The translations under genes and the position numbers were made by a program. The notes under the pieces were generated by a model. It was not told where the DNA came from, did not search any database, and saw only the letters and a list, made by a program, of their open reading frames with translations. From Gemmatimonadota bacterium (GTDB lineage Bacteria > Latescibacterota > UBA2968 > UBA8231), in contig JABHDC010000096.1 of the NCBI GenBank assembly GCA_018673255.1, positions 1 to 35,803 on the forward strand: a DNA stretch of 35,803 nucleotides, written 5' to 3'. Below are positions 8,806 through 34,000 of the stretch, piece by piece; within the stretch, counting starts at the first letter, position 1; the number at the start of each line of letters is the position of its first letter.

Positions 8806-8882
<77 letters not shown>

Positions 8883-15655: not shown

Positions 15656-17440
15656 TCAACGAAGACGGATTCCGAGTTCGCGCAACTGAGTTTCATCGAC
15701 CCCTCCCGGCGCGTCTTCCATAAGCCCCACGGCCCGGTTGGTCTTGGGGAAGGCGATCACCTCCCGAATGCTGCTCTGACCGGCCAGAAGTGCCACGAGC
15801 CGGTCGAACCCAAAAGCGATCCCGCCATGCGGTGGAGCTCCAAACGTGAGGGCATCGAGAAGGAAGCCGAATTTCGCCCGTGCCTCAGCCTCATCGATAG
15901 CCAGGAGTCGGAATACCTTCTCCTGCATTTCCTGTTGGAAGATTCGCACACTGCCACCGGCGACTTCATTGCCATTGATGACCAGGTCGTATGCCCTGGC
16001 GCGTACGGCCCCGGGATCACTCTCCATGAGGGCAATGTCTTCCTCCATGGGCGAAGTGAAGGGGTGGTGCTTGGCAACATAGCGGTTCTCCTCTTCGTCT
16101 CGCTCGAGAAGAGGGAACTCGGTGACCCACAGAGGGTTCCACGTATCCTCGCCAATCAGATCCAGCTGGCGAGCCAGTTCGAGTCGCAGAGCGCCGAGGA
16201 CCTTGGCTACCATGTCAGGTGTATCTGCGACCAGCAGCAGGAGGTCGCCGGGTTCGGAGCCCAGGCTCGAAATGAGCAACTCCTGCGCTGACTCCGGGAA
16301 GAACTTGACGATCGAAGCTTCGAGGCCTTTGTCCGTGTGTTTGATCCAGGACAATCCCTTGGCGCCCTGCTCTTGGGCGAAGGCGATCAGCGCGTCGATG
16401 CGGCTTCGCGGTAAAACGCTGCAGCCCTTCGCGTTAATGCCCTTAACCTGTCCACCGCCGTCGAGCACAGTCTGGAAGATCTTGTATTCAGATGCCCTCG
16501 CAGCTTGCTCCGTATCCACGAGTTCGAGGCCAAAGCGGGTATCAGGCTTGTCTGAGCCGTATCGATCCATCGCCTCGGCGTACGTCATTCGGGGAAAGGA
16601 ATCGGGCAGGGTCAGGTCACGTACCTCTGAACAGATCTGACGGGTGAGATTCTCGGCCAGATCCATGATGTCATTCTCGGCCACGAAAGACATCTCGATG
16701 TCGATCTGAGTGAACTCCGGTTGTCGATCAGACCGCAGGTCCTCGTCCCGGAAGCATTTTACGATCTGGAAGTACCGATCGAGGCCTGCCATCATCAGCA
16801 ACTGCTTGTACGTCTGGGGCGACTGGGGCAAGGCGAAGAAGCGGCCCCGATGCACTCGACTGGGTACCAGGTAGTCACGAGCGCCTTCAGGTGTGCTGCG
16901 AATCAGGAAGGGTGTCTCGATCTCGAGGAAGCGAGCCCCGTCGAGGAATCTGCGTGTTGCCTGATAGGCCTGGTGCCGGAGGATGAGATTCTGCTGCATG
17001 GTCGCACGCCGCAGGTCGAGATAGCGATAGCGCAGCCGCGTTTCCTCACCTACCTCGACCTGATCATCAAGTTGGAAGGGAATCGCCTCGGAAGTGTTCA
17101 GAATCCGGACGTCATCACAGTTCACTTCGATGGCGCCGGTCACGAGCCGTGGATTCCGCATGCCCTCGGGGCGGTGTTCGACCACACCATGGACCGCGAT
17201 CACGTACTCGCTGCGCAGCACGTCCGCCTTGTCATGGGCAGAGGAGGAGTGCTGAGGATTGAAGACGACCTGTGTGATACCATAGCGATCACGAAGGTCG
17301 ACGAAGATGACACCCCCGTGGTCGCGACGGGTCGCGACCCAGCCCATGAGGATGACCTCTTCGGTGAGGTGGTCCTCAGAGAGTGTGCCACAGTCGTGGG
17401 TGCGTTGCCAGTCGCCGAGGCGATCGAGTTGCTCGGTCAT
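15656..17440 (-). CDS. aspS: Aspartyl-tRNA synthetase
   Basis: 594 residues, full length for bacterial AspRS: an N-terminal OB-fold anticodon domain (about 15-115), then the class II core with motif 2 F-R-D-E-D-L-R-S-D-R-Q-P-E-F-T-Q, the bacterial GAD insertion (about 290-410), and motif 3 G-I-A-F-G-F-D-R-L. It charges tRNA-Asp. Residues H41 (R-R-D-H-G-G) and G93 (R-P-E-G) match the His/Gly pair of non-discriminating AspRS enzymes, which also make Asp-tRNA-Asn for GatCAB. ATG 17440 is used; a GTG 57 bp upstream is possible, and neither has a strong ribosome site. It is transcribed away from the cysteine operon. Confidence 0.95.
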   Translation of the reverse strand: MTEQLDRLGDWQRTHDCGTLSEDHLTEEVILMGWVATRRDHGGVIFVDLRDRYGITQVVFNPQHSSSAHDKADVLRSEYVIAVHGVVEHRPEGMRNPRLVTGAIEVNCDDVRILNTSEAIPFQLDDQVEVGEETRLRYRYLDLRRATMQQNLILRHQAYQATRRFLDGARFLEIETPFLIRSTPEGARDYLVPSRVHRGRFFALPQSPQTYKQLLMMAGLDRYFQIVKCFRDEDLRSDRQPEFTQIDIEMSFVAENDIMDLAENLTRQICSEVRDLTLPDSFPRMTYAEAMDRYGSDKPDTRFGLELVDTEQAARASEYKIFQTVLDGGGQVKGINAKGCSVLPRSRIDALIAFAQEQGAKGLSWIKHTDKGLEASIVKFFPESAQELLISSLGSEPGDLLLLVADTPDMVAKVLGALRLELARQLDLIGEDTWNPLWVTEFPLLERDEEENRYVAKHHPFTSPMEEDIALMESDPGAVRARAYDLVINGNEVAGGSVRIFQQEMQEKVFRLLAIDEAEARAKFGFLLDALTFGAPPHGGIAFGFDRLVALLAGQSSIREVIAFPKTNRAVGLMEDAPGGVDETQLRELGIRLR

Positions 17441-17533
17441 AGGGTCAGTGTCGATATGTCTGTTGGGGTGGCAAGTGAGGCCCTCCGAGATCGTCACATG
17501 AACGGGCTCTGTGGTCAGAATCCCCTACAGCGA

Positions 17534-17634: not shown

Positions 17635-17683
17635 GAGGAGCAGAAATGACGGCTGCAAAACCTGCTAAACGTATGTTGGCCTT

Positions 17684-17693
17684 ACACTAGTGT
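17684..17693. promoter_or_regulatory. Perfect palindrome ACACTAGTGT
   Basis: A 10-bp perfect palindrome 30 bp upstream of the -35 element of the operon promoter. It is a possible activator or repressor site; no regulator is assigned. Confidence 0.3.
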
Positions 17694-17723
17694 CAATTCA
17701 TGTCACAGCAATCAGATGATGCT

Positions 17724-17751
17724 TTGACAGCCGCAGAGGCACCCCTATATT
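17724..17751 (+). promoter_or_regulatory. Promoter of the cysteine/TMTC operon
   Basis: TTGACA (17724-17729), a 16-bp spacer, and TATATT (17746-17751). This is the closest match to the sigma70 consensus seen in the window. The first gene starts at 17794, leaving a leader of about 35 nt. Confidence 0.75.
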
Positions 17752-17793: not shown

Positions 17794-18321
17794 TTGAGCA
17801 ATCCCAAGGCCCAGGCCCTACTGAAGGTTGTCGAACAGATTCCCATGTTCTCTCACGTGGGCAGAGAGAATGCGGCGCGTGTCGTGCAGGCCTGTGAGGT
17901 TCGGCACCTGGACGCCGGTGCCATCCTGTGCAGGGTGCGAGAGGCAAGTGATGCTCTTCATATCCTGCTCAGTGGCAGGTTGACGGTTGTGACCGAGAAT
18001 GGTATCGATCTTGCCCAGATCGATCCGGTGGCGCCTGTGGGTGAAATGGGCATGCTCACCGGCCAGCCAAGATCCGCCACGGTCCGGGCGCATCAACGAT
18101 CGACGATTCTGTCTCTGCGCAAGGCAGCATTCGAAGGGCTCATGCGGAAGCACCTGGCGATCGCGCGCCAGGTGCACCGGAATGTTCTGTTGATCCTGGC
18201 CACTCGCCTGGTCGAAGCGCACGACAATCACGATCAAGAACAGGCTCGACTCCATGAACTCGAACGACGCCTCGAGAGGGCTCAGGAGGAGGTCCGTACA
18301 CTGCATGCCAGCCATGGATGA
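17794..18321 (+). CDS. Cyclic-nucleotide-binding-domain protein without DNA-binding domain
   Basis: 175 residues. A CRP-type beta-barrel domain spans about 15-125 (L-H-I-L-L-S-G-R-L-T-V and G-E-M-G-M-L-T-G-Q-P-R-S-A-T-V-R-A). The phosphate-binding cassette keeps G-E and R-S-A, so a cyclic nucleotide or similar effector may be bound. The dimer-type helix follows, and then, instead of a helix-turn-helix, a charged coiled coil (E-L-E-R-R-L-E-R-A-Q-E-E-V) to the end. It is therefore probably a sensor acting through protein contact, not a repressor/activator. TTG 17794 sits about 40 bp from the promoter with a weak ribosome site. It is the first gene of the operon and its end overlaps cysM by 17 bp. 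Confidence 0.8.
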   Translation: MSNPKAQALLKVVEQIPMFSHVGRENAARVVQACEVRHLDAGAILCRVREASDALHILLSGRLTVVTENGIDLAQIDPVAPVGEMGMLTGQPRSATVRAHQRSTILSLRKAAFEGLMRKHLAIARQVHRNVLLILATRLVEAHDNHDQEQARLHELERRLERAQEEVRTLHASHG

Positions 18322-19318
18322 AGAGGCTGAAAGGTCGAGGACCGTCGTCGATGAAATCGGCCGGACACCTCTGGTCCGGATCCCTGATCCCACGCTGAAG
18401 AGCGGGGTCGAGATCTATGCCAAGTGCGAATTCTGCAATCCCGGTGGCTCCGTCAAGGACCGCCCGGCGCGCCGCATGATCCTCGAGGGGCTGGCCAGCG
18501 GCGATCTTGTCTCCGGCAAGGTGATCCTGGACTCTACGTCTGGCAACACGGGAATCGCCTACGCCATGATCGGCGCGGCACTCGGCTACCCGGTTCGTCT
18601 GGCCATGCCGGCCAGTGTCACGCCAGAGCGCAAGGCGATTCTTGCAGCCTATGGGGCCGAGGTCGTCCTCACGGATCCGGCGGAGGGCTCGGATGGCGCG
18701 ATTCTCGAGGCGAGGCGGCTCTATGAGGGAGATCGGGCACTCTACTACAAGCCGGACCAATACAACAATCCGGCAAACTGGTGGGCCCACCGAGACACGA
18801 CGGCACCGGAGGTGTGGGCGCAGACGAAGGGGAGGGTGACCCATCTGGTGGCCACTATGGGGACGAGTGGGACGGTGATGGGAACCGGCAGGGGCCTGAA
18901 GACTTTCAATCCCCAGGTGACGGTCGTGGGTGCTGAGCCGGCCGATTCCTTCCATGGGATCGAGGGGCTGAAGCACATGGAGAGTTCCATCGTGCCGGGG
19001 ATCTACGACGAGAGCACACTGGATCGAAAAATGGGCGTCGAAACCGAGGATGCCTACGACACCAACGTCTGGCTGGCGCGTGAATTCGGTATCCTCGTCG
19101 GACAGTCATCCGGAGCTGCGTACTGGGCAGCGCGTCAGATTGCTGAAGAAATCGATGCGGGGATCATCGTCGCCGTGTTCTGCGACGGTGGGGACAAATA
19201 CATGACGACGGCCATGTGGCAACCCGTGGTCGAAGCCGCCGTCCAATCACCACCGGGCCAGGGCGCCGTGCCAGGTTCCTGCGAACCACGGCTCCGGCTA
19301 GCGAAAGGGTTCCATTGA
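18305..19318 (+). CDS. cysM: CysM-type cysteine synthase (CysO-thiocarboxylate dependent type)
   Basis: 337 residues, fold-type II PLP enzyme. PLP lysine K51 in N-P-G-G-S-V-K-D-R-P; phosphate loop S-T-S-G-N-T-G-I-A (78-86). Features shared with M. tuberculosis CysM rather than CysK are K-D-R-P-A-x-R-M-I, G-T-S-G-T-V-M-G-T-G-R, and E-x-x-x-G-I-L-V-G-Q-S-S-G-A. That enzyme uses O-phosphoserine and the sulfur of CysO-COSH. Mec and CysO encoded in the same operon support this assignment. About 30 low-complexity residues extend the C-terminus. ATG 18305 has AGGAGGAGG 12 bp upstream; ATG 18314 is possible. Its stop overlaps the mec start (TTGA). Confidence 0.88.
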   Translation: MPAMDEEAERSRTVVDEIGRTPLVRIPDPTLKSGVEIYAKCEFCNPGGSVKDRPARRMILEGLASGDLVSGKVILDSTSGNTGIAYAMIGAALGYPVRLAMPASVTPERKAILAAYGAEVVLTDPAEGSDGAILEARRLYEGDRALYYKPDQYNNPANWWAHRDTTAPEVWAQTKGRVTHLVATMGTSGTVMGTGRGLKTFNPQVTVVGAEPADSFHGIEGLKHMESSIVPGIYDESTLDRKMGVETEDAYDTNVWLAREFGILVGQSSGAAYWAARQIAEEIDAGIIVAVFCDGGDKYMTTAMWQPVVEAAVQSPPGQGAVPGSCEPRLRLAKGFH

Positions 19319-19779
19319 AGATTCGTCGTTCAGATCTTGAGAAGATCCATGCTCAGGCTCGGGAGGAGTATCCTGCTGAGTGTTGCGGTATCCTCACGGC
19401 ACCGGACGTTGTGGCGCCATCGCAGGTACATCGCTGCCGGAATATCCAGGACGAACTCCACACCAAGGATCCCGAGCAATACCCCCGTGAATCGAAAATC
19501 GCATATTTCATCGATCCGCAGGAATTGTTTCAGGTCGTGTCGGGTGCAGAGAAATCCGGTGGCCTCGTTACAGGATTCTATCACAGCCACATCGACTGCG
19601 ACGCGTATTTCTCCGACGAGGACAAGGAACGCGCCATGGCCTGGGATGAGCCCGCCTATCCGGATGCCGTGTATGTCGTGGTCGCCGTCTATGGTGACGA
19701 GGTACGCATGACACGAGCCTTTGGATGGGATGAGGCGCGCAGAGATTTCATCGATGTCGAAATCGACATTGTCGACTGA
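19315..19779 (+). CDS. mec: Mec-type JAMM metallopeptidase (CysO-cysteine hydrolase family)
   Basis: 154 residues, MPN/JAMM (M67) zinc peptidase. E22 in P-A-E-C-C-G-I-L and the zinc motif H90-S-H92-(x7)-S100-x-x-D103 are complete. The closest functional type is mycobacterial Mec, which releases cysteine from the CysO-Cys adduct, and QbsD/Mec proteins that trim extra residues from sulfur carriers. TTG 19315 overlaps the cysM stop; AAAGGG lies upstream. In this operon CysO ends Gly-Gly-Cys, so Mec would be needed both to mature the carrier and to release product. The gene end overlaps the TMTC-like gene by 26 bp. Confidence 0.9.
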   Translation: MKIRRSDLEKIHAQAREEYPAECCGILTAPDVVAPSQVHRCRNIQDELHTKDPEQYPRESKIAYFIDPQELFQVVSGAEKSGGLVTGFYHSHIDCDAYFSDEDKERAMAWDEPAYPDAVYVVVAVYGDEVRMTRAFGWDEARRDFIDVEIDIVD

Positions 19780-21634
19780 CGGATCCTTTCGGCGCAGCGC
19801 CCTCCTGCTGGTGCTGTTGGTTGGCGTCATTTACAGTGCGAGTCTGCGCGCCGGGTTTCACTACGATGATTTCCATTCGATCGTACGAAATCCACACCTC
19901 AGTCTGACTCATCTCACTGCCTTCTTCGTAGACCCGGGCCTGTTCTCCGTCAATCCGGAGAGCGCCATGTATCGCCCGCTGTTGTTGACGACGTACGCCC
20001 TGAATCGCCTGATCTCGGCAGGTGATGCCTGGTCGTATCATCTGATCAATGTCATCCTCCATGCGGCCAGTACCATCGTCGTATGCAGGCTTCTTCGGCT
20101 CCTCGGGTCATCTTTCGGTATCAGCGTGTTGGCTGCGGTCCTGTTCGCTGTGCATCCGATCAACAGCGAAGCTGTGGCCTATGTCAGCAGCCGTTCGGAA
20201 TTGCTGGCGAGCCTGGGCATCCTCCTGTTCTGTTGCCTGGTCCTGACCTCGTCGCAGAAGGGGCGCACAGGCCTGATGGCCATCGGCTGTCTGGCCGCTG
20301 CCATTGCCTCCAAGGCGGTGGCCATCGTCTCACCTCTGCTGGCATTACTGGGGCTTGCCCATGCCGGTCGTCTGAAGGCAGATCGCCGTTCCCTGCAAGT
20401 CATCATCCTCAGTGGTGTACTCCTGCTCGGTTACCTGCTGATTGTGCAGAATCTGGTGTCGCGTGCATTCGTGGATGCGCCCGTTCGCGGGTTGAGTTCG
20501 CAGATGGCGACGCAACTGAAGGCTCTTGGATACTATCTGTGGCTGATGGTCATGCCGGTACATTTGAGTGTGGAGCATCAGTTTGCCGTCAGTCGCGACT
20601 TCGAACTGGTCGTTGGCGTGGCAGCCGCATGTGTTGGGTCCCTGCTGGTACTGGGTTGGCGTGCCCGGTATATCTGGCGCTGGGGATCAGCCTGGTGGTT
20701 CGTCTGCCTGCTGCCCACAGCTGCCGTACCTCTCATCGTTCTGGTGAACGAGCACCGGTTATACGGTGCCAGTGTCGGGGTGATGGCGCTGATCGCCTGC
20801 GTCCTGGGGGGACAGACAGACCGGCGACGTATGGCTGACGGCTGGATCGCCGTGTATACTATCTCGCTTGCGATCCTGACAATTCAGCGCGTCGATGTCT
20901 GGCACTCTGAGCGATCTGTATGGCAGGATGCGGCGATCAAAGCACCCGCTTCTCTGAAGGCCCAACTGCGTTGGGCCGATGCTCTGGCCAAAGATGGAGA
21001 GGTCGCCCAGGCCGAAGAGGCTTATCTGCGTGCCGTGGCGCTGCGACCGCATCACCCGGGTGCAAGAAACAATCTCGGGAGACTGTATCTACTGCAGGGG
21101 CGGTGGGATGAAGCGCGACATCAGTTTGAGACATTGCTGAACGTGTCGCCGGATAATCTGCCGGCACGGATGAATCTTGGTCAGATCCATTTTCGCCAAG
21201 GGCGCCCGGATGCGGCCAAGGTCCAGTATCTGGCTGCAATTGACCTGGGTGCGACCCGTGGCCGCGCCCAACTGCGAATCGCACAGATCGGACTTCGGCA
21301 CAATGCTGACGCATACAGCATTCTGACCTGGCTCGAAAGAGCAGTCGCCGCAGGAGAGAGTTCAATTGACGTGCAGGTGTCTCGAGGGATTGTCCTGCGT
21401 CGATTGGGTAGATTGCAGGAGGCGCGCATGGCCTATGAATCGGCCGTCGCCATCGATGCCAGTTCCGCCGACGCCTGGTACAACCTCGGCAATCTGTATG
21501 TCGAACTGAACCGGGATCAGAAGGCGGTTCATGCCTATGGACTGGCCGCTGAGCACAGTGTACAAGGGGACGCCATCTACAGGGCGGCCCGCAAACGACA
21601 ACAAGCAGTCATCAACAAGATCAGAAGAAACTGA
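19754..21634 (+). CDS. TMTC-like GT-C membrane protein with TPR repeats (paralogue 1)
   Basis: 626 residues. The first helix is followed by the GT-C style acidic motif F-H-Y-D38-D39-F-H-S-I-V-R-N-P-H-L, then M-Y-R-P-L-L-L-T-T-Y-A-L-N and L-F-A-V-H-P-I-N-S-E-A-V-A-Y-V-S-S-R-S-E. These are the hallmark segments of TMTC O-mannosyltransferases of animals. About ten membrane helices run to residue 400; 5-6 TPR units follow (about 415-620). It is likely an inner-membrane protein using a polyprenyl-phosphate sugar, with the TPR part engaging the acceptor. Donor and acceptor are unknown. ATG 19754 overlaps mec by 26 bp; TTG 19769 is an alternative. Confidence 0.82.
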   Translation: MSKSTLSTDGSFRRSALLLVLLVGVIYSASLRAGFHYDDFHSIVRNPHLSLTHLTAFFVDPGLFSVNPESAMYRPLLLTTYALNRLISAGDAWSYHLINVILHAASTIVVCRLLRLLGSSFGISVLAAVLFAVHPINSEAVAYVSSRSELLASLGILLFCCLVLTSSQKGRTGLMAIGCLAAAIASKAVAIVSPLLALLGLAHAGRLKADRRSLQVIILSGVLLLGYLLIVQNLVSRAFVDAPVRGLSSQMATQLKALGYYLWLMVMPVHLSVEHQFAVSRDFELVVGVAAACVGSLLVLGWRARYIWRWGSAWWFVCLLPTAAVPLIVLVNEHRLYGASVGVMALIACVLGGQTDRRRMADGWIAVYTISLAILTIQRVDVWHSERSVWQDAAIKAPASLKAQLRWADALAKDGEVAQAEEAYLRAVALRPHHPGARNNLGRLYLLQGRWDEARHQFETLLNVSPDNLPARMNLGQIHFRQGRPDAAKVQYLAAIDLGATRGRAQLRIAQIGLRHNADAYSILTWLERAVAAGESSIDVQVSRGIVLRRLGRLQEARMAYESAVAIDASSADAWYNLGNLYVELNRDQKAVHAYGLAAEHSVQGDAIYRAARKRQQAVINKIRRN

Positions 21635-21643
21635 GGAGAGATC

Positions 21644-21922
21644 ATGGCCATCACCGTTCACATCCCAACCCCTTTGCGCAAGCTCACCGGCAATGCTGCC
21701 GAGGTTGAAGTTGAAGCTGCCTCGGTTGACGAACTCGTCGAGAATCTGGAAGCGGCGCACGCAGGCATCAAAGAGAAACTTCTCGACGAGGCTGGCGAGA
21801 TTCGTCGTTATGTGAATCTCTACGTCAATGATGAGGACATCCGTTTCCTCGACGGCAAGCAGACGGCGCTCAATGCTGGCGATAGTGTAACGATCGTACC
21901 TGCCATCGCTGGTGGTTGCTGA
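21644..21922 (+). CDS. cysO: CysO-type ubiquitin-like sulfur carrier ending Gly-Gly-Cys
   Basis: 92 residues, beta-grasp ThiS/MoaD fold. Strong likeness to mycobacterial CysO: M-A-I-T-V-H-I-P-T-P-L-R near the start, V-N-L-Y-V-N-D-E-D-I-R-F in the middle, and G-D-S-V-T-I-V-P-A-I-A-G-G at the end. CysO is thiocarboxylated on the last Gly and donates sulfur to CysM. Here one extra codon, TGC (Cys92), follows the diglycine before TGA, so the carrier is made blocked and must be trimmed. GAGGAG stands in front of ATG 21644, 10 bp after the TMTC-like stop. No E1-like activating enzyme (MoeZ type) is in the window. Confidence 0.93.
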   Translation: MAITVHIPTPLRKLTGNAAEVEVEAASVDELVENLEAAHAGIKEKLLDEAGEIRRYVNLYVNDEDIRFLDGKQTALNAGDSVTIVPAIAGGC

Positions 21923-21953
21923 GCGAAGTTTCACACAACTGATCGGGGGGGGC

Positions 21954-23987
21954 ATGGGCCCGGGCAGCTTTTCGGTGAGGCAGTGGGTTCCCTGGCTGTT
22001 GTTGGCCCTTCTACTGGCCGGCTTGTACGGTCCTGCCTTGAGCTACCCCTTTCACTACGACGACATGCACAGCGTCGCCGAGAATCCGCACATTCGGAAT
22101 CTTGGCGGCGCTGTTTCCTTGTTGGATCCCACCGCCTTTTCGGCTGACCCGGATCGGGCGATGTTTCGCCCCCTTGTGGTGCTCAGTTACGTGATCAATG
22201 AACGGCTTGGCGGCAGCGATCCGGCCGGATATCACCTTCTCAATATCCTGCTTCATGCTGCGATGGCCGCGGCCGTTGGTTGGTTTGCAGTGACCAGTCG
22301 CCTGACCCGACAGGCATGGCCTGCAGCGGCGCTGTTTGCCCTGCATCCGCTCAATGTTGAGGCAGCAGTTTACGTCAGTACTCGATCTGAATCGCTTGCG
22401 GCTCTGGGCATTCTTGTCGCCCTCACGGCCTACATCTATTCGCGGCAACCCCGGCAGCAGCGATGGCGATGGGCGTCCCTGGTGGCGATGGGGTGGGGCC
22501 TGCTCGCGAAGGCAACGGCGATCACCACCGTGGGGCTGGTTGGGCTGTGGGAGATGCGATCGACTCGGCGACGCTGGATGGCGGTATTGCCCTTCAGCTT
22601 CCTCGCAATTCTCTATCTGGTGCAGAGTAAGTCTGCTCTGGGGCATGCCGTTGGCGAACCCGTGCGACCATTGTGGACGCAGGTGATGACGCAGATGAAG
22701 GCTCTCGTCTACTACGTGAGTCTGATGGTCACGCCGATCCACCTGAACGTCGAGCATGCCTTTGCAGAATCGCTGCATCTTGATGCAACGACTGTTCTTG
22801 CCGCACTCCTGGCAGCCTCGTTGGCGATCATCCTCTGGCGCTCGCGATCGAGGCGGCTGCAATTTGCCTGCCTTGGCTCACTGTGTCTTCTGGGCCCGTC
22901 GACACTGGTCCCGCTTAATGTGCTGGTCAATGAGCACCGTCTGTACCCTGTGCTCGGCCTCCTGATCCCGGCCCTGGCAGGGGGGCTGCATCTGTCGATC
23001 TGGCGAGATCGATTGTCGTCTCGATCGGCCGCTCAGGGGACTGATTCAGGGGGAGTTGATTCGTCGGGAGCCGATACACCGAGAGCCGGTGGCGCCCGAG
23101 GCTACTTCTTCGTCGCCGCGCTGCTCGTGCTGGCTGTCCTGAGTAGCCAGCGCGTCGAAGTCTGGTGTAGTGATCTGAGTCTCTGGACGGATGCTGTTGC
23201 CAAGGGGCCGGCCATGTATCGGTCACATATGCACCTCGGAGGGGCTCTCGAGGATCTTGGCGAGATCGCAGCAGCCCGGACCTCGTTCTCACGAGCTGTC
23301 GAGCTGGCGCCTGGCAACGAGCAGGTCCATTACAATCTGGCAAATGCACAGCGTGCCCTTGGAGATACACTGGCTGCACTGCGCAGCTATGAGCAGAGCC
23401 TCCGACTAAAACCCGATTTTGTCGATGCGGCGATCAATCTGGCGGCCCTCCATCGTGAGACTGGAGATGCCAGCATGGCCACATCGGTGCTGACGCAGAC
23501 CATCGCGCAACGCAGCCGGAATCCGGAACTCTATCGTCGCCGCGGACTCAGTTACCGGGATCAGAGTGATGAGAAAGCGGCAGCGGCAGATTTTCGTGCA
23601 GCGCTGAAGCTTGACGCGGCTCATGTGGAGAGTCATTTCAGTCTGGCGAATCTGTTGTTCGATACGGGACGTGCCCAGGAGGCAGTCACGCACTATCAGG
23701 CGGCCCTGGCGGTGCAACCAGGACATCAGGGCGCAGCATACAACCTGGCGGATCTGGCCCTGAAGAGCGGGGATCCCGCCATGGCGCAACGGGTAGGTGA
23801 GGCCGCCTTGCTTGTGGGACCGGTGCAGGGCAAGTTGTATTACCTGATCGGGCAGGCCCACGATCAACAGGGACGGGCTACGCAGGCCATTGCCAATTAC
23901 CGCCATTTCCTGCAGGCGTGGCCGACAGGACCGGCCATCCGGCAGGTCGTGGAGCAACGAATCAAGCTACTCGAGCGGCAACGCTGA
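21954..23987 (+). CDS. TMTC-like GT-C membrane protein with TPR repeats (paralogue 2)
   Basis: 677 residues. Same plan as paralogue 1: F-H-Y-D36-D37-M-H-S-V-A-E-N-P-H-I after helix 1, M-F-R-P-L-V-V-L-S-Y-V-I-N, L-F-A-L-H-P-L-N-V-E-A-A-V-Y-V-S-T-R-S-E, then L-N-V-L-V-N-E-H-R-L-Y-P in the last part of the membrane domain. A Gly/Ser-rich loop (about 360-385) precedes the final helix. Six to seven TPR units fill about 415-675. ATG 21954 has a G-run directly in front; a GTG at 21912 inside cysO is possible. The gap to cysO is 31 bp and to cysK 27 bp, so all are probably one transcript. Confidence 0.82.
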   Translation: MGPGSFSVRQWVPWLLLALLLAGLYGPALSYPFHYDDMHSVAENPHIRNLGGAVSLLDPTAFSADPDRAMFRPLVVLSYVINERLGGSDPAGYHLLNILLHAAMAAAVGWFAVTSRLTRQAWPAAALFALHPLNVEAAVYVSTRSESLAALGILVALTAYIYSRQPRQQRWRWASLVAMGWGLLAKATAITTVGLVGLWEMRSTRRRWMAVLPFSFLAILYLVQSKSALGHAVGEPVRPLWTQVMTQMKALVYYVSLMVTPIHLNVEHAFAESLHLDATTVLAALLAASLAIILWRSRSRRLQFACLGSLCLLGPSTLVPLNVLVNEHRLYPVLGLLIPALAGGLHLSIWRDRLSSRSAAQGTDSGGVDSSGADTPRAGGARGYFFVAALLVLAVLSSQRVEVWCSDLSLWTDAVAKGPAMYRSHMHLGGALEDLGEIAAARTSFSRAVELAPGNEQVHYNLANAQRALGDTLAALRSYEQSLRLKPDFVDAAINLAALHRETGDASMATSVLTQTIAQRSRNPELYRRRGLSYRDQSDEKAAAADFRAALKLDAAHVESHFSLANLLFDTGRAQEAVTHYQAALAVQPGHQGAAYNLADLALKSGDPAMAQRVGEAALLVGPVQGKLYYLIGQAHDQQGRATQAIANYRHFLQAWPTGPAIRQVVEQRIKLLERQR

Positions 23988-24014
23988 ATCTCACGTGGCC
24001 ATGGAAGGAATTTC

Positions 24015-24935
24015 TTGAAGCGAGCCCAGAATATCCTGGAACTGATCGGGGCGACGCCGATCGTGCGGTTGCAGACAGTCGTCGCCTCAGAGGGCGCGCA
24101 GGTGTGGGCGAAGCTCGAGTCAGTCAATCCCGGGGGGAGCGTCAAAGACCGGATCGCCTTGGCCATGGTCGAAGAAGCTGAAGCCAGTGGTCGCCTCCAG
24201 CCTGGTGGCACGATTGTGGAGCCCACCAGCGGGAATACGGGGATCGGGCTGGCCATGGTTGCAGCCGTCAAGGGATATCGTCTGATCGTGACGATGTTCG
24301 ACACCGCCAGTCGCGAACGGCGGCTGCAGATGCAGGCCTTCGGCGCCGAGGTTGTGCTCACCTCCGCCGCTGATGGGATGCGTGGTGCCATCGACCGGGC
24401 CGAGGAGCTGGTGGCGGAGAATTCTGGCTATTTCATGCCCCAGCAATTCGAGAATCCCGCCAATCCTGAGATCCACCGACTCACGACAGCCCGTGAGATC
24501 CTCAGTCAGATGCCCGAAGGAGTGGACGTTTTCGCAGCCGGCGTCGGAACGGGTGGCTCGATCAGCGGCGTGGGGGCCACATTGCGTCAGGAACTGGGCG
24601 ACCGGGTGCGAATCGTGGCCGGTGAGCCTGCGGGGTCTCCTGTATTGACAGGTGGTGAGCCCGGCATCAGCTATATCGAGGGGATCGGCGCCGGATTTGT
24701 CCCCGATACGCTGGATCGCAGTGTCGTTGACGAGATCCGCACGATCGAGGACGACGATGCCTACGACATGACCCGGCGCCTGGCTCGCGAAGAGGGGATT
24801 CTTGTGGGCGTCTCCGCTGGTGCCAATGTCTGGCTTGCAGGTGAGATCGCCCGCGATCTGTCGCCTGAGCAGCGCGTGGTCACCATCCTCTGCGACAGCG
24901 GCCTGAGATATCTGAGCACGCGCGTCTACGAGTAG
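24015..24935 (+). CDS. cysK: Cysteine synthase, CysK type (O-acetylserine sulfhydrylase)
   Basis: 306 residues, the normal length. PLP lysine K44 in N-P-G-G-S-V-K-D-R-I; E-P-T-S-G-N-T-G-I-G-L-A (69-80); F-E-N-P-A-N-P; and G-V-G-T-G-G-S-I-S-G-V-G. This is the sulfide-using CysK pattern, in contrast to the CysM of the same operon, so the operon covers two routes to cysteine. TTG 24015 has GGAAGG 8 bp upstream. The stop codon lies inside a 13-bp hairpin that probably ends the operon. Substrate preference (O-acetylserine or O-phosphoserine) is inferred from the family only. Confidence 0.92.
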   Translation: MKRAQNILELIGATPIVRLQTVVASEGAQVWAKLESVNPGGSVKDRIALAMVEEAEASGRLQPGGTIVEPTSGNTGIGLAMVAAVKGYRLIVTMFDTASRERRLQMQAFGAEVVLTSAADGMRGAIDRAEELVAENSGYFMPQQFENPANPEIHRLTTAREILSQMPEGVDVFAAGVGTGGSISGVGATLRQELGDRVRIVAGEPAGSPVLTGGEPGISYIEGIGAGFVPDTLDRSVVDEIRTIEDDDAYDMTRRLAREEGILVGVSAGANVWLAGEIARDLSPEQRVVTILCDSGLRYLSTRVYE

Positions 24936-25092: not shown

Positions 25093-26715
25093 CTATCGGC
25101 CACCCGGAATCACACGCTGACGCAGGGTCGGGTCCAATTGCAGGGCCCGCTGCAAAGAGCCCATGGCCTCGGATCGTTGTCCGGCATCGCGCTGAGCCAA
25201 CCCCAGATTCAGCCAGATCTCGCCACTTTCAGGCGACAGATGGGCAGCTCGCAGAAGAACAGGCACCGCCTCCAGCGGCCTGTTCAGCCCGATCAGGACC
25301 GAGCCAAGATTATTCAGAACCTCGCCGCCATCGGGCTCAAGCCGGGCCGCCTGCTGCAATATCTTCAGTGCTGCCGGAAGATCCCCCTGCTCTCGTAGGA
25401 GGGCCCCCAGATTGTTCATGGGTCGCACGTAATCTGGGTCCAGGCGCAGGGCTTCCCGGTAGTGTGATATGGATCTATCTGATTGTCCGGCAATGTGTTG
25501 TGCAAAGCCGAGATTGTAGTGAGTCGCTGCCATCTGCGGCCCGGCTTGCACCGCCGACCGCCAGATAGACTGCTCCGTGCGCCAGGCGGGTGCACGTTGC
25601 CAGCTCAGGATGAAGAAGACGCACAGAACGGCGGCCAGCAGGGGCGTCTTCACTCGTCGCGGCAACTCCACAACCATCCAGCACAGACCCGCCACCGCCA
25701 GATAGGGGCGATGGTCATTGACCAGGATATTCAAGGGGATCGCGAGTGTCGGGCTGAGACAGGCGACGAACCAGCCCATGCCGCGCCAGAGAGTTCGGGG
25801 TCTGAGTCGCCAGCAGATCACTGCCAGACTGAGGATCACTGCCCATGTTGCCATCTCGACCGGCTCGAGGCGGGTGCTCTGACTGAACTGGGGGTGGATG
25901 CTCAGTCTGACGGGCATGGCGGCGCTCATCGAGTAGTGGATGAGTGCCTTGGACTGCGTGAGGAGTTGAGACCCCATTGACCTCAAGGGTTGGGTGGCAG
26001 TTGATGCGGTAAGTGATTGATGAATCAGGAGATAGGCCATAGCCAATGCTCCAAATGGGGCGCTGGCTCGAAGGGACTTGCCAATAGATTGGGACGGGTA
26101 CAGTCTCGTGCTGATCAGGAAGATGAGGGCAGGCGCGACGATGGCTGTCGCCTTGCACATCAACCCCAGTCCGGCACTGACCACGGCGAGGGAAGACCAT
26201 CCGCGTGACCCGGTGCGCTGTGAGGAGACGAAGGCGACCAGGGTCAGAATGACGAAGAGGCCGGCCATCGATTCGGAGCGGGCAGAGGCGTAGTGGATGA
26301 CCTCTGACTGGAGTGGGTGCAGTCCGAACAGGAGGCCCCCGGCCAGGGCCGTCCACGGTGGCAGCATCAGGCAGAGCAGCCAGGTGGCCAGGCCCGCCGA
26401 CAGCGCATGAATCAGCAGATTGACGGCTACGAAGCCGCCCGGCTCGAGCCCGCTGAAGGCCAGGTTCAGGCTGTGCGTGACCAGGACCAGAGGCCGATAC
26501 ATCCGGTCCTCCGGGTTTTCGCCAAACAGAGAAGCATCTGCAAAGAAGAGAGGGAGATTGTTCAGATCCCGCAGGTGGAGATTGCGGACCAGGGAATGCC
26601 CGTCGTCGTAATGGAACTCTTCCGCTCCCGGTGCCTGCAGGTGTGCCAGGCAAACGGCGAAGCAGACCAGGGCCGCAGGGAACCAGCGGCGGTGGAGGAG
26701 GGACGTCACGTCCAT
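25093..26715 (-). CDS. TMTC-like GT-C membrane protein with TPR repeats (paralogue 3, inverted)
   Basis: 540 residues, the shortest of the three. F-H-Y-D37-D38-G-H-S-L-V-R-N-L-H-L after helix 1, M-Y-R-P-L-V-L-V-T-H-S-L-N, L-F-G-L-H-P-L-Q-S-E-V-I-H-Y-A-S-A-R-S-E, and L-N-I-L-V-N-D-H-R-P-Y. The membrane part runs to about 395; four TPR units fill about 410-530. It points toward the operon and ends exactly where the truncated fourth copy loses similarity. ATG 26715 was chosen because the first helix begins there; the ribosome site is weak and an upstream start at 26757 is possible. Donor and acceptor are unknown. Confidence 0.8.
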   Translation of the reverse strand: MDVTSLLHRRWFPAALVCFAVCLAHLQAPGAEEFHYDDGHSLVRNLHLRDLNNLPLFFADASLFGENPEDRMYRPLVLVTHSLNLAFSGLEPGGFVAVNLLIHALSAGLATWLLCLMLPPWTALAGGLLFGLHPLQSEVIHYASARSESMAGLFVILTLVAFVSSQRTGSRGWSSLAVVSAGLGLMCKATAIVAPALIFLISTRLYPSQSIGKSLRASAPFGALAMAYLLIHQSLTASTATQPLRSMGSQLLTQSKALIHYSMSAAMPVRLSIHPQFSQSTRLEPVEMATWAVILSLAVICWRLRPRTLWRGMGWFVACLSPTLAIPLNILVNDHRPYLAVAGLCWMVVELPRRVKTPLLAAVLCVFFILSWQRAPAWRTEQSIWRSAVQAGPQMAATHYNLGFAQHIAGQSDRSISHYREALRLDPDYVRPMNNLGALLREQGDLPAALKILQQAARLEPDGGEVLNNLGSVLIGLNRPLEAVPVLLRAAHLSPESGEIWLNLGLAQRDAGQRSEAMGSLQRALQLDPTLRQRVIPGGR

Positions 26716-26798
26716 ACGAGAAGGGTCCGCACCATCACAAGTATGGGCGGACCCCAAAATCCAATCCTACTGAATCCAGTCTCACGGAATCGATTCGT

Positions 26799-26849: not shown

Positions 26850-27104
26850 TCAGCCCAGACCACGCACGAAATGCGTCAGTCGTGACTTGTACCGAGAGGC
26901 TGTATTCTTGTGGATGACGCCCTTCTTCTGGGAGACATCGATCACGGAGATGGCCCGGGCCAACGCCTCCTGACCACCGGTCGCATCGGCGGCTTCGCGA
27001 ACCTGCTTGATCGCAGATCTCATGGTGGAGGTGATGTGCTTGTTGCGGTCCCGCTGCTCGTAACTTTTGCGCAGGCTCTTCTTGGCAGATTTCATTTTCG
27101 GCAC
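26850..27104 (-). CDS. rpsT: 30S ribosomal protein S20
   Basis: 84 residues, the usual size. Start M-P-K-M-K-S-A-K-K-S-L-R-K-S with the basic helical pattern of bS20; K-G-V-I-H-K-N-T-A-S-R-Y-K-S-R-L is the conserved C-terminal helix. It binds 16S rRNA early in 30S assembly. The start codon is GTG (27102-27104) behind GAGGGAG. A weak start codon on rpsT recalls the UUG start of E. coli rpsT, which takes part in its autoregulation. The leader shows two short stems (CCGGG/CCCGG and GCGGTC/GACCGC) that could serve this purpose here. Confidence 0.95.
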   Translation of the reverse strand: MPKMKSAKKSLRKSYEQRDRNKHITSTMRSAIKQVREAADATGGQEALARAISVIDVSQKKGVIHKNTASRYKSRLTHFVRGLG

Positions 27105-28041: not shown

Positions 28042-31000
28042 ATGAGCTTTAAGCGCATGATTTGCAGCGCAATGCTCGGCGTTCTCGCTTTAGGGTTCGG
28101 GAGCCAGGTGATGGCTCAGCCGATCTTTGAGAACAATACTCCGACAGGTTTCTCCGTGTCGGATAGCACGAGCGCAACCAATTTCGTGACCGAGAAAGAG
28201 GTCACGGTACAGGTTGATCTCAACGACGCTGCAAACTTCGACTATCCCGTAATCGGCAACTTCCAGAAGATGGAGCGCAGTGTGCCCTTCTTCTCGACGC
28301 CGGCTACCGCATCATATATGCACCAGTCGCTGGAGGTAGACGCCAATGGCGTCATCCACCGTGCCTGGATTCAGCAGCGTGGCGTCGTGGATCTGACGAT
28401 CCCGACGAGTACGCCAGTCTACGGCGTCGTCTACGCCAAGAGTCTCGATGGAGGCAAGACGTTCCTCGATACGGTTTCCGTGTCAGGTTCCTTGCGCTTC
28501 GACATGATCACCCCGAATCTCTCGATGACATCCGGTTTCTCAACGCTGGACCTCGTCGTCGATAGTAAGGGGAATCCGCGTGTTGTCTACGCAATGAACT
28601 TCTCGGCCGACGGCATCATGGGGTGGGGTAACGACTCCCGCGTGGGCCTCGACCGTGATGCTAATCTTACGACCGATCTCGTTCGTTCCCACAACAACAT
28701 TTACTTCAACTACTCGAACGACGGTGGTAGTTCGTGGTTGCCGGCGAACAATGCTGTCGTAGTCAACGACACGGCGACAGCCGGTAGTGGTGTGGCCGCG
28801 ATTCCGTATCCGGGTCGCCATACGGCATTCCCGCGGATGGCGATCACGACCACGGATGACATCTTCATCACTTATCAGCGCGGCTTCAATGGAACCGCCT
28901 GGTTGACCACCGCAGCAGCTCGTCCGGATATCATGCTGGCGAAGATGGATTCGGACAGTCTGAAGCTCGGAAGTGCACAGCCTGTTCGTGTCGGATCAGA
29001 GGGAACCGTCGGGTCCACAGGTGGTGTTCGCCTGGATCCCGACGCTCTCCATGGTCTGTCGCCTGATATCGCAATAGGTGACGACGATAACCTGCATGTT
29101 ACGTGGTACGCGCCCATTGCAGGTACGATTCAGCACAAGCAGATCGACGTTGCGAGCTGGGACGACCTGAGCCAGTTTGGATGGGACCAGGGCGCAATCG
29201 GCTCCACGGTGGGTAGCTTCGCTGGCGACTTCGTTGCCAACCTTGGCATCACCCGTGGCGTTGCTGGGCGTGACGAGCACATCCTCAGCGGGCTCGTGCA
29301 TCTGTTCCCGACGATCGCCGTGGATCGCAGCCGGACGCCAGATCGCGTCTACGTGTTCTGGAAGCATACCGATGAGCCAGCTGCTGATACGGGCAACGAC
29401 GAGAACATTGCGTATGCCTTCTCGAACTACAATGGACAGGCCGGGAGTGGGGCTTCTTTCGGTTCCACGAACTTTGCCTTTCCCACCGGCACTGGTGTCG
29501 GAACAGTGGCGTCAACGCCGATGTTCCAGGCCAGTTCGAAGTATGTGATCGAGAACTACTGGCAGTTTGTTGATCGTGTGGCAGTGGCAATCGATCCCCG
29601 CAAGCCGAATGGCGCTGATATTCACATCGCCTTCACGGGTGGACAGAGCATCAGTCCATACGCCCTGGCCGGACCTCGAAATGGCACGGCACCGGAGGTG
29701 AACACAAGCGTCTTCTACTCGCGCTTCAATGGCACGGAGTGGGAGTTGCCGCAGGTCGTGGCGTCTCAGGCAAATGGTTCATCTGATGGATTCCTGAGCG
29801 CTTCTTTTGGAACTGGCGGTAACTCAAGAGCTCACTCCGAGGTATTTTCGCCTGATATCGCCATGCGGGATGGTGACGCTGGCGTCTATCTGACCTTCGT
29901 TGGTGGTTCATCGAGTGCTGCTGGTGCGGACGTTCGAGGCACCGCGGTTGGTGAGCAGTCGGGTCGTGGCTACGGCGCCAGTGGCTCTGGCGCGATCGCT
30001 CCGCTGCCCTACTTCAAGATCATTGGGCGCGATGTCAGCTTTGCTGACGTGTCGATTCCCAACGGCGCCAATGTCTACAGGCTGCAATACACCCCTGTGA
30101 ATCCGCCGCTGTTCAGTGGTGGTGCCACGGCCCTGACGAAGCGAATGGTGCAGATCTCTGCCGCCAACAATTCTGACGGCACGGGTATCGGTGCGGCGAC
30201 GCCAGGTGCATCCGCTGCTCCTGGCGGGTTCCTTACCGGTCAGTGGTCGCGCTTCAGTGCGACCTCGATGGGTGTCACGTCGCTAAATCCTGGTGAATCT
30301 GGGGCTATCTTCAAGGGTGCCATCAGTCTGAACCAGGCCCAGAACGACAACGGTGTGTGGCAGGGCAGTCTTGACGATGACGGCTCGGCAGGTCATGCCG
30401 AGTGGGGTGATGATGCTGACAAGGTCGGGATGCTGCTGAAGCTGAACGTCCTCGGAGGCGACTCGTCGACGAACCTGTTCGTGTTGACCGCAAGCAGTGC
30501 CGCGATCATCTCCACGAACACCGACTCCTCTTCTCAGAGCGTGTCCTTCGTAACGAGCAATGTCTTCAGTCCCGCTGCGACAGCGAGTGTCCTTACTTCC
30601 AACATTCCGAGCCGGATCGCCCGAGGCCTGACGTTCAACGGCCAGACGACGCGTCCGAACCCGGGAGCGAATACGGCCCCTGGAAGCACAATTCCGGTGG
30701 GTAGTTTCTTCCAGATGGGTGCGAACATCTCGATTGTTGCCGACAACAAGGCACCGATTGTGGATGTGGTGACGCCTGATGCGACCACGACTGACAATGG
30801 CGCCTTCTCGAGTGAGACGTTCGGAATCCGATACGTCCTGTTCGATGAAGATGACAATGTTGGTACGACGGCCGGTCCTGTGGCACCGGATACACTCAAG
30901 ATGGAGCTCTACGGCTATCCCGATAACGGTCTGTCGAATGTGCTTGATATTCGCACCTTCGGTCGTCTGATCGTTGACGAGAACGATGCCTTCACGACAG

Positions 31001-34000
31001 CCGTCACCGCTGGTACTGGTGACTTCTCCGAGGGCACGTCGTCGAGCAACGTGCAGCTCTACACCTGGGATGATCCGGGCGTGACGCTGCAGAATGCCTA
31101 CAACTTCGCGCCCATCACCAAGGAGCGTGACGGTACTTACTACATCTACGTCGTCGCCGATGACGGTAGCAACCCGCCTGTCTACGCTGTCAGTGACGGT
31201 CCCATGCGGCTCCGTCACGTGCCGCTGGTCAAGTCGGTGTCGCCCGTCGCTGTCGATACCGTCGATACCGGTGAATTCGACGATCTGGACAAGACCAATC
31301 CGTTTAAGATCTTGTTCTCGCTCGTCGACTACAATGACAATGCACAGGCCCGTCTCTTCTTCGCTACGGCGAGTAACCTGACGGCGGGTGATGTTGTCAT
31401 CACCGGAACCTATCCCAACCTGGACATCGGCCTGACGGGGGCGACCCCGATCCAGCTGTCCGACTCTCTGCGCACGGACGAGGACGTCGAGTTTGACTTC
31501 GATGTCACCGCCCAGGGTAGCACAGGGGACTCGATCATTGCCCAGGGTAACTACACGGTGTATGCGGTGGTCGCTGACGGTGATTCCTTCTCCGTTGGTG
31601 CTTCGACCTTCCCGCTGTCCGTCCGCCACTCGCCCGCCTTTGAGTTTACGGCGCCGTTGGCAGGGACAGTGAAGAAGATCTCTACCACCCGTCAGTTCGA
31701 CTACACCATCGAGTGGCAGCGAGGTCGCTCCGATCAGGATCTCGATGGCAATGCGATCATCAGCCTCTACTACACCGGAATAGATCCGAATACGTTCGAC
31801 TACTCCGGTCGTGACTCCACCACACTGGTGGCCACGAGTGGGTCCAATGCTGGCAATGCCATTCTCATCTCTGGCAGCATCCGTGAGGATGATGAAGGAG
31901 CTTCGGATCAGTTTGTCTGGAACTTCAAGAGCCCGCCAGGTGAGTTGCCCCGCGTCTACAAGCAGGTGTATGACGATGCAGGCGCTCCATCGCCCTACTC
32001 GCCACACGCCTATCAGATCGGCGCAGTCACCGATACGGCATGGGTCTATGCCGTGCTCAGCGACACGCTCGGCAATACGCGTGTTGCGGCTGGTGGTGCG
32101 GTCCTGCTGCTCGGTTCGCAGGAAACACCTGCGTCTCAGGCGCCGCGCGTGATCATGCGCACGCCGCCAGCCGGCGACCAGCTTCTGGTCAACGGTGACG
32201 TGGTCAAGCTCGAATGGGATGCGTTCCTGATCGATGATGGTACCGGCACCGACGATGCCTATCTGCGACTCTATGCAGCGCCGAAGGGGAAGTACAGCAC
32301 CCTGACGCAGCTGGAGACGAACATGACGGGTGTCGGTGGCGCTGCTGACGTCATTCTCATCAACAGCATCACTGGTACGGATACAACCGCTTCTCACGTG
32401 GTCACAATGCGTGAGAGTGGCGCCAAGTCCTACAACTGGGATACGAAGACGACATCCTTCGCCATCTCTGGTACGCCGACGGAATTCGACATCTTCATCG
32501 CCGGCAGCATGGACCCCTTCACGACGCACCATGCAGCACCGGTGTACGTGAACGGCCAGGTCGACTCCGTCGCCTCTGGTCTGGGTGCCAATTCGCAGCA
32601 GGCAGTCTTGTCGAAGGCCCCCGGTGTCCTGCGTGTTGAGGGCACGGATCCGCTCTACAGTCTTGAGTTGAGTCCGAGTTCCTTCACGGCCAGTTCGGGT
32701 GACACCCTTGAGTTCCAGTTGTTGGCGAACTCTCAGGGAAGCTCCATCGACCAGATGGCGTATCACCTGAATGTGCCACGCAGTCACTTCTCGGTCCTCG
32801 ACTGGGACGACAATGCGGCCAATGGTTTCCAGATGTTCCAGGATTCCTCTGGTGCTTTCCAGACCCCGAGCACGATCGCACAGAACGACACCACACCTGG
32901 TGACGATCAGTGGATCAAGCTCAACTTCGTCGAGGCTTCTATCCTCGGTGAGGTGGTCGGTCGAGTCGCGTCGCCGTATGACAGCTCGCAGGTCGTGGGT
33001 AGCTTCAAGCTTCTCGTCAACAACTACTCTGGCGGTGCGCCGCTGGATACGATGTTGGAATGGAGCACGGAGCCGGGTCGCCAGAGTGCTTTCTATCGTG
33101 GTACGACCGAGCTGGCTTCGCCGGCTCGTGATGCCAAGGTGATCCTGACACCTCGGGCTCGCCTGTTCGTCACCGTACCTCTGGAGGGTCGTTCAGACTA
33201 TTCCGAGACCATGGACGCTCACTTGCGTCTGATCGGGTCGACGCACGACATCACCGACCAGGATTACATCACGGCTAATGATGTGAGCCCGGTGTTCTCC
33301 GGTGGTGGTTCGTCCGGCGCCCTCGAGGACTCGGTCAATGTCAGCACGGATGCCTTCGGTTCGTTCACGCTCACCCAGATCCCACCGGGTGTATACGAAC
33401 TGACGGTGAAAGCGCCTGGTTATATCACCGGTCGCAGCGACACACTGACACTGTTCAATGGGAAGACGCAGTCGATCGAGCCGACCTTTGTCTCTGACGC
33501 CCTGGGCAATCTTTCGCCCGCCACCCCCCTTGGTTCACTCCGAGGTGGTGACGCGACGAATGACAACCAGGTCGATATCGCTGATGCCAACCTGATCTTC
33601 AGTGTCTGGAACGAGACCACCGCCGATCCTGGCTACGTCCGCGATGCTGATGTCAACAACGATGGCGTGATCAACACCATCGACCTCGGCTTCGTGACGA
33701 AGAACTTTGGTAATGACGGTTTTGGCGCCCCGCCGGTGTTCAAGTTGATCACCAGTGGTGGCGACAACAGCACAGCCATTGCCAAGGTCGAAGGGGTCGA
33801 GGATGTCGAAGCCTGGTGGCCTGGTCGGGTGTTCGAGGTAACCGCCCGTCTCGAGGACATGTCTGACGTTGCCGCCTTCGGGTTGCAGCTGACGTATGAC
33901 CCCGAGAAGGTGAAGCCTCTGGCCGCCGAACAGGCTGTCGCGCAGGGTGACGTCTTTGACGGCAACGCTGCAGGCTCGCTCTTCTTCCACCGCGTCGCAG

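What the first reader, a model, noticed from the sequence alone, without database searches (positions are those of the whole stretch)
17794..24935. Operon mixing protein-thiocarboxylate cysteine synthesis with TMTC-like glycosyltransferases and a cNMP sensor
Seven same-strand genes with overlaps or gaps of 31 bp or less, behind a near-consensus promoter: cNMP-binding protein, cysM, mec, TMTC-1, cysO, TMTC-2, cysK. The mec and cysO genes are separated by a membrane GT-C/TPR gene that overlaps mec. Such tight interleaving suggests a functional link: perhaps cysteine supply for, or CysO-type modification of, exported glycoproteins, or a shared redox/sulfur signal read by the cNMP protein. I know of no described system of this composition.
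Basis: partly seen in the sequence, partly recalled or inferred. Interest (0 to 1): 0.85.

Follow-up and report, generated by a model that had tools for sequence, protein, structure and literature searches.

The report
Cysteine operon interleaved with membrane glycosyltransferases
In one little-known group of bacteria, genes that make cysteine through a small sulfur-carrier protein alternate in one operon with genes for membrane sugar-transferring enzymes; the mix is real and old, but the two sets look like separate modules sharing a promoter rather than one machine.

Summary
In detail: cNMP-cysM-mec-TM1-cysO-TM2-cysK lie on one strand with overlaps or gaps up to 31 bp, behind TTGACA-N16-TATATT boxes conserved in two relatives.

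It is conserved, not chance: 15 of 41 mec neighbourhoods examined in the phylum carry a TM beside mec. TM1 is one clade of 12. An outgroup-rooted tree needs one gain and two losses. Both losses left cysM-mec-cysO (with cysK in one) between aspS and rpsT.

TM1 models confidently as a GT-C glycosyltransferase whose TPR domain is predicted periplasmic. Of 16 cassette genomes, 14 hold 11-23 TM matches, many in a tandem array in a surface-polysaccharide locus; 14 also encode a giant secreted protein seen in 0 of 48 others.

Best reading: a CysO/Mec/CysM cysteine pathway plus members of a surface-glycan GT-C family, co-transcribed but separable. Direct TPR-CysO/Mec contact and cysteine supply for the giant protein (one cysteine) are unlikely. 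One genome keeps mec-TM1-cysO-TM2 without cysM and cysK beside them, so a dedicated CysO/Mec-glycosyltransferase link is not excluded.

The parts
17724..17751 (+). promoter-like TTGACA-N16-TATATT of the operon
   Evidence: both boxes invariant in L001 and L038
17794..18321 (+). single-domain cNMP-binding protein, TTG start; GE..RSA stretch looks like a phosphate-binding cassette (motif recalled); facultative member
   Evidence: PF00027 2.8e-17; relatives
18314..19318 (+). cysM-like PLP cysteine synthase (ATG 18314 or 18305)
   Evidence: PF00291, TIGR01138 below cut-off; best solved matches are cysteine synthase B chains 2jc3, 2bhs
19315..19779 (+). mec, JAMM metallopeptidase of the CysO pathway, TTG start
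   Evidence: PF14464; H-x-H-x7-S-x2-D
19754..21634 (+). TM1: GT-C glycosyltransferase-like membrane domain plus TPR superhelix predicted periplasmic (ATG 19754 or 19730)
   Evidence: model pLDDT 94; GT-C matches; topology
21644..21922 (+). cysO, ubiquitin-like sulfur carrier ending AGG-C (one residue past GG)
   Evidence: PF02597; chain 3dwg_C 5.4e-22 (that this is M. tuberculosis CysO is recalled); tails
21912..23987 (+). TM2: GT-C/TPR paralogue (GTG 21912 or ATG 21954)
24015..24935 (+). cysK, cysteine synthase A, TTG start
   Evidence: TIGR01139 over cut-off
25093..26757 (-). TM3: third GT-C/TPR paralogue, convergent, between cysK and rpsT
   Evidence: (in a TM3 clade of 6, SH-aLRT 100)
15656..17497 (-). 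aspS, left flank of the conserved site
   Evidence: conserved in relatives with and without TMs
26850..27104 (-). rpsT (S20; name from the reading, no family scan), right flank of the conserved site
   Evidence: matched in relatives with and without TMs
28042..34470 (+). giant protein, taken as secreted (signal-like start, FlgD_ig/sorting-type tail, dockerin, CarboxypepD_reg), 1 Cys; co-occurs with the TM cassette

Best explanation
Two modules share one promoter. Module A (cysM, mec, cysO, cysK) makes cysteine: Mec first trims the extra C-terminal residue of CysO to expose GG (inferred); a MoeZ-like E1 encoded elsewhere puts a thiocarboxylate on CysO (gene shown in relatives, activity inferred); CysM transfers that sulfur onto an aminoacrylate to give CysO-cysteine, and Mec releases cysteine (known for M. 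tuberculosis, inferred here); CysK makes cysteine from free sulfide (inferred from family). Module B (TM1, TM2, TM3, often the cNMP protein) consists of GT-C glycosyltransferases with an extracytoplasmic TPR domain. They belong to a paralogous set that serves a surface glycan or glycoprotein system (tandem array in a polysaccharide locus, giant secreted proteins). The TMs entered the old cysM-mec-cysO-cysK operon once, are inherited vertically, and are lost as a block when the surface system is lost. Interleaving gives co-expression, probably to tie envelope building to the same growth or sulfur state; no physical or chemical step shared by the two modules is needed.
Against: G009 keeps mec-TM1-cysO-TM2 between aspS and rpsT with no cysM or cysK there, and the five best of its ten PALP matches include none over 39% (cysM) or 49% (cysK) identical to the window's (the five weaker ones were not compared). 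This is not what a purely cysteine-making module A predicts. Co-occurrence rests on about one gain and two losses, so the counts are not independent. Two cassette genomes (G059, G061) show no giant protein, and G050 and G059 show only 4 TM matches; no completeness figures were given for these genomes. G036 and G021 have 13 and 11 TM matches without a cassette seen (G021 has no Mec match). TM match counts include pieces of one gene and were capped at 29 scored candidates a genome. TM-free G057 and G058 have another kind of large Ig-repeat protein in the place of the giant, so 'surface system lost' means this family. No transcript or biochemical data exist. Co-expression for envelope/sulfur coordination is inference.
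Confidence: 0.6

Rival explanations
1. Pure hitchhiking: TM genes landed in a well-expressed operon and stay there only because clean excision is rare; co-expression has no benefit.
For: The TM family is large and mostly elsewhere; clean TM-free versions of the site exist.
Against: The same order with position-specific TM orthologues persists over Mec identities to the window's down to about 40%, and the promoter boxes are conserved in the two nearest relatives.
Confidence: 0.18
2. Chemical coupling: the surface glycan pathway consumes CysO-borne sulfur or cysteine (for example a thio-sugar or a cysteine-capped glycan), and the TMs transfer the product.
For: Interleaving; methyltransferase and radical-SAM genes in the surface loci of G001, G002 and G005, and one sulfatase-like gene in G002; use of sulfur carriers for thiosugars is recalled, not found (one search returned no paper).
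Against: TM loss leaves CysO/Mec/CysM in place twice; no thiosugar synthase was recognised among the genes scanned, which were only part of the locus; the giant protein has 1 Cys.
Confidence: 0.1
3. CysO acts as a ubiquitin-like modifier of the TM proteins or other envelope proteins, with Mec as the deconjugase.
For: G009 keeps mec-TM1-cysO-TM2 without cysM/cysK beside them; CysO scores 54 bits on the SAMP1 model (cut-off 60) and Mec 58 on a desampylase model (cut-off 130).
Against: The TPR domain and catalytic loops are predicted outside the cytoplasm; such similarities are shared by MoaD-like and JAMM proteins in general (recalled); G009's branch is 1.02 on the mec+cysO part of one tree and 0.6 on aspS+mec+phoH, a rough hint of relaxed constraint.
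Confidence: 0.06

Closest known systems
CysO-CysM-Mec cysteine pathway of Mycobacterium tuberculosis (pathway statements from passages of PMC3227635; gene order mec-cysO-cysM recalled)
   Same: Ubiquitin-like CysO with AGG, JAMM protease Mec, PLP CysM, ThiF-type E1 encoded elsewhere in relatives
   Different: CysO has one residue after GG; gene order cysM-mec-cysO-cysK with GT-C/TPR genes between; CysM nearest to cysteine synthase B chains among solved structures, no M. tuberculosis CysM recognised among the 60 of 129 shown
TMTC1-4 O-mannosyltransferases (passages of PMC7801869)
   Same: GT-C membrane domain followed by extracytoplasmic TPRs; DD in EL1; (Y/F)RP in EL1; Arg and Tyr in EL5. That paper mentions full-length prokaryotic homologues, one at 24% identity to TMTC3
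   Different: No PF08409 hit; SHKS part of motif M2 absent; RxE for RxD; KET reduced to K; EHRxY for ERxxY
ArnT / Stt3 / ALG12 GT-C enzymes
   Different: About 10% identity; TPR superhelix instead of their own soluble domains
Sulfur carriers with a removable C-terminal cap (QbsE/QbsD, HcyS/HcyD; recalled, searches listed nothing relevant)
   Same: GG followed by extra residue(s) and a JAMM protease encoded nearby
   Different: Here the cap is one variable residue in 12 of 13 cassette-group sequences and the product is presumed to be cysteine

Membership tests
CysO/Mec/CysM cysteine pathway | Ubiquitin-like carrier homologous to CysO with C-terminal GG | tested here: met
   (3dwg_C, E 5.4e-22); GG present but followed by Cys
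CysO/Mec/CysM cysteine pathway | GG is the exact C-terminus of the encoded carrier | tested here: not met
   42 of 43 distinct CysO sequences have residues after GG, window included (one further sequence was cut by the contig end); trimming untested. So filed as a variant that works like the pathway
CysO/Mec/CysM cysteine pathway | JAMM metallopeptidase motif in Mec | tested here: met
   H-x-H-x7-S-x2-D in 131 of 131 mec ORF hits over 140 bits, not deduplicated
CysO/Mec/CysM cysteine pathway | Adenylating/sulfurtransferase E1 in the genome | tested here: met
   PF00899 over cut-off in 12 of 13 relatives' genomes, not in G001; the window's own genome is not held; rhodanese fusion only inferred from about 400 aa length
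CysO/Mec/CysM cysteine pathway | CysM uses CysO thiocarboxylate with O-phosphoserine | not testable with these tools
   Needs enzymology
GT-C glycosyltransferase superfamily | GT-C fold with acidic catalytic residue in the first external loop | tested here: met
   for TM1; FHYDDxHS in all three window TMs
TMTC family | PF08409 TMTC_DUF1736 match | tested here: not met
   No match at E<=1e-3 for TM1, TM2, TM3
TMTC family | Seven motifs M1-M7 of human TMTCs | tested here: inconclusive
   M1 DD met; M2 only (Y/F)RP; M3 RxE; M4 only K; M7 EHRxY; M5 and M6 not assessed (matched by eye)
TMTC family | TPR repeats C-terminal to the GT-C domain on the extracytoplasmic side | tested here: met
   (prediction by positive-inside rule, 0.223 against 0.067 K+R per residue)

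The most novel reading that the evidence does not exclude
CysO and Mec in this clade have a second, cysteine-independent job tied to the GT-C/TPR glycosyltransferases (sulfur delivery to a surface sugar, or ubiquitin-like control of envelope glycosylation). That would explain why one lineage has dropped cysM and cysK from the locus but kept mec-TM1-cysO-TM2 in order between aspS and rpsT.
Probability: 0.08. Interest if true: 0.85.

Novelty: new variant of a known kind. Interest (0 to 1): 0.5.

Why it matters
It is a natural experiment in operon mixing: a protein-thiocarboxylate cysteine pathway and TMTC-like glycosyltransferases merged once, stayed interleaved over a deep clade, and were separated cleanly twice at the same site, giving TM-free comparators. 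It points to a large uncharacterised bacterial GT-C/TPR family, 11-23 matches in 14 of 16 genomes that carry the cassette, tied to surface polysaccharide genes and giant secreted proteins. It also shows CysO carriers made with a removable C-terminal residue beside a JAMM protease.

Tried and rejected
Chance neighbourhood: rejected, since the order recurs with orthologous TMs. As a quick first sign, 22 of 68 Mec rows on contigs of 2,900 bases or more (best 120 of 464 listed) share their longest-contig length with a TM1 row (119 of the 120 listed rows were entered); jittered lengths gave a mean of 0.23 and a maximum of 3.

Plasmid origin: no support; tblastn of TM1 against plasmids gave 8 records, none covering over 34%, all from residue 383 on, in the TPR part.

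Riboswitch or other known RNA at the operon: only a tRNA at 8809-8882 in the window at gathering scores.

Giant protein as cysteine sink: rejected, 1 Cys. In TM-free G057 and G058 the same place after rpsT holds a He_PIG Ig-repeat protein with no significant likeness to the giant in the one tested, G057; in G062 the genes scanned there are metabolic. So the giant-cassette link is about this family only.

TM2 and TM3 labels are not all clean: four of twelve TM2 rows (window, L001, L038 together; L003) and one of seven TM3 rows (L038's plus-strand copy behind cysK) lie outside the main clades on long branches; left open. TM pieces under 250 profile positions and the duplicate loci L105-L134 were left out of that tree. 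The 50 rows shown of Foldseek's list are TPR matches; GT-C matches appear in the second look.

Papers: PMC7801869, PMC3227635 and PMC12993501 seen as found passages only; the rest as search listings. PMC12993501 notes TPR proteins and cysK in Latescibacterota but has no CysO mention.

Not done: three of 44 strong mec genomes (G042, G043, G046) were not looked at; G039 has mec at a contig edge; 36 of 116 Mec stretches were not returned; metagenome contigs could not be scanned; the loci L212-L214 fetched were not analysed; the phylum name is inferred from mixed NCBI titles (Gemmatimonadetes, Latescibacterota, Handelsmanbacteria).
Full report
What is there. Starts can be refined: cysM ATG 18314 (or 18305), mec TTG 19315, TM1 ATG 19754 (or 19730), cysO ATG 21644 with AGGAG, TM2 GTG 21912 or ATG 21954, cysK TTG 24015. 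A third paralogue, TM3, sits convergent at 25093-26757, then rpsT, then a 2142-residue protein that looks secreted. The promoter boxes are conserved in L001 and L038 although most of the spacer has diverged.

Conservation. A Mec profile (A1) scanned over a collection with one genome per species gave 116 relatives, of which the best 80 loci were returned. In 15 of these 80 a TM lies beside mec, and all 15 belong to genomes of one phylum; L049 has only a weak TM match 9 kb away. All seven genes in order are seen in L001, L008, L011, L012, L024, L038 and L052 (L010 lacks cysK and has a broken cNMP gene); others show parts, several cut by contig ends. In the phylum of L001's genome, 47 of 64 genomes have Mec at E<=1e-3, 44 of them below 1e-40. 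Of these 44 I saw the neighbourhood of 41: 15 have a TM next to mec and 26 do not (one of the 26, G039, is cut by the contig end). G060 shows TM2-cysK-TM3-rpsT at a contig edge without mec, giving 16 cassette genomes.

Without TMs. A sister group (G051, G052, G054-G058) has phoH- aspS- | cysM mec cysO cysK | rpsT-, and G062 has aspS- | cysM mec cysO | rpsT-. Deeper members place a FAD-dependent oxidoreductase between mec and cysO (L016, L020, L027) and an Rrf2 regulator between cysO and cysK (L019, L027, L046), while L013 has a ThiF-rhodanese gene in the first slot and L040 a methyltransferase after mec. On a tree of cysM+mec+cysO+cysK rooted on four outgroup loci (39 rows), TM presence needs three changes: one gain at the base of a 23-row clade (99/95) and losses in G062 and in the seven-genome sister clade (L039 and L003 fill under a third of the columns). 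An aspS+mec+phoH tree places both losses the same way (one row, L007, was mislabelled there).

Paralogues. With a membrane-domain profile (A2), 59 of 64 genomes have a match at E<=1e-10; 14 of the 16 cassette genomes have 11-23 matches (G050 and G059 have 4 each), and two of the other 48 have 11 or more (G021, G036). Matches can be pieces of one gene, and at most 29 candidates a genome were scored. Many copies form a tandem array: 10 in G001 (28-48 kb of contig 26), 9 each in G002, G003 and G005. Array neighbours, scanned mainly in G001 and G005, are SLBB/Poly_export and Wzz proteins, GT4, Asn synthases, polysaccharide deacetylase, PGA_cap, DegT aminotransferase-sulfotransferase, LepA and a signal peptidase. 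In G002 cassette and array lie on one contig about 63 kb apart, with two large secreted-type proteins, GT2/GT4, methyltransferases, radical SAM and flippase-like genes between. In a tree of 113 TMs, TM1 is one clade of 12 (SH-aLRT 100), six of seven TM3 rows group (100), eight of twelve TM2 rows group (98) with the window's TM2 among the four outside on long branches, and array members group largely by position.

Giant protein. Its first 1000 residues match 14 of 64 genomes at E<=1e-10, all of them among the 16 cassette genomes.

Cys pathway. A ThiF E1 is present in 12 of 13 relatives tested. CysO ends AGG plus extra residues in 42 of 43 distinct sequences; in the cassette group exactly one residue (C, Y, R, S, H or N) in 12 of 13. 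Since chains 3dwg_C and 4n6e_B end at GG, the cap must presumably be removed first, most simply by Mec; this is inference. G009 keeps mec-TM1-cysO-TM2 between aspS and rpsT but has no cysM or cysK there; of its ten PALP matches the five best were compared and reach 39% and 49% identity. Its Mec keeps the JAMM motif, and TTGACA-N17-TATACT boxes precede it (read by eye).

Judgement. The operon is real, old and unusual, and my searches listed no description of it (open-licence papers only, capped listings). Its parts behave as two modules that separate cleanly, so co-expression rather than a joint reaction is the best reading; a dedicated CysO/Mec-glycosyltransferase link rests on G009 alone.

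Noticed in passing
window 21644-21922; L001, L003, L008, L010-L012, L024, L038, L039, L052, L173: CysO proteins end one variable residue after GG (C, Y, R, S, H, N); deeper relatives end GG-CSF, GG-RC and the like, suggesting a cap removed before activation.
   Followed up: partly
L135-L149, L151, L152: Tandem arrays of GT-C/TPR genes (10 in G001, 9 in G002, G003 and G005), members largely orthologous by position, with Asn synthase or GT4 genes inside and surface-polysaccharide genes around.
   Followed up: partly
window 28042-34470: Giant protein with dockerin, CarboxypepD_reg and FlgD_ig domains; two or more copies in at least nine of the 14 genomes that have it, and among the 64 searched only in cassette genomes.
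   Followed up: partly
window 6101-8302 (minus): Apolipoprotein N-acyltransferase (LNT_N + CN_hydrolase) in one frame with a C-terminal alpha/beta-hydrolase domain.
   Followed up: no
window 17659-17700: Block of about 40 bases upstream of the promoter, almost identical in L001 and L038; read on the minus strand it holds a TTGACA, perhaps the aspS promoter.
   Followed up: no
L016, L020, L027, L019, L046: In TM-free relatives the slot between mec and cysO holds a FAD-dependent oxidoreductase (L016, L020, L027) and the slot between cysO and cysK an Rrf2 regulator (L019, L027, L046).
   Followed up: partly
L039 5590-16332: mec-TM1-cysO-TM2 kept between aspS and rpsT without cysM, cysK or cNMP.
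   Followed up: partly
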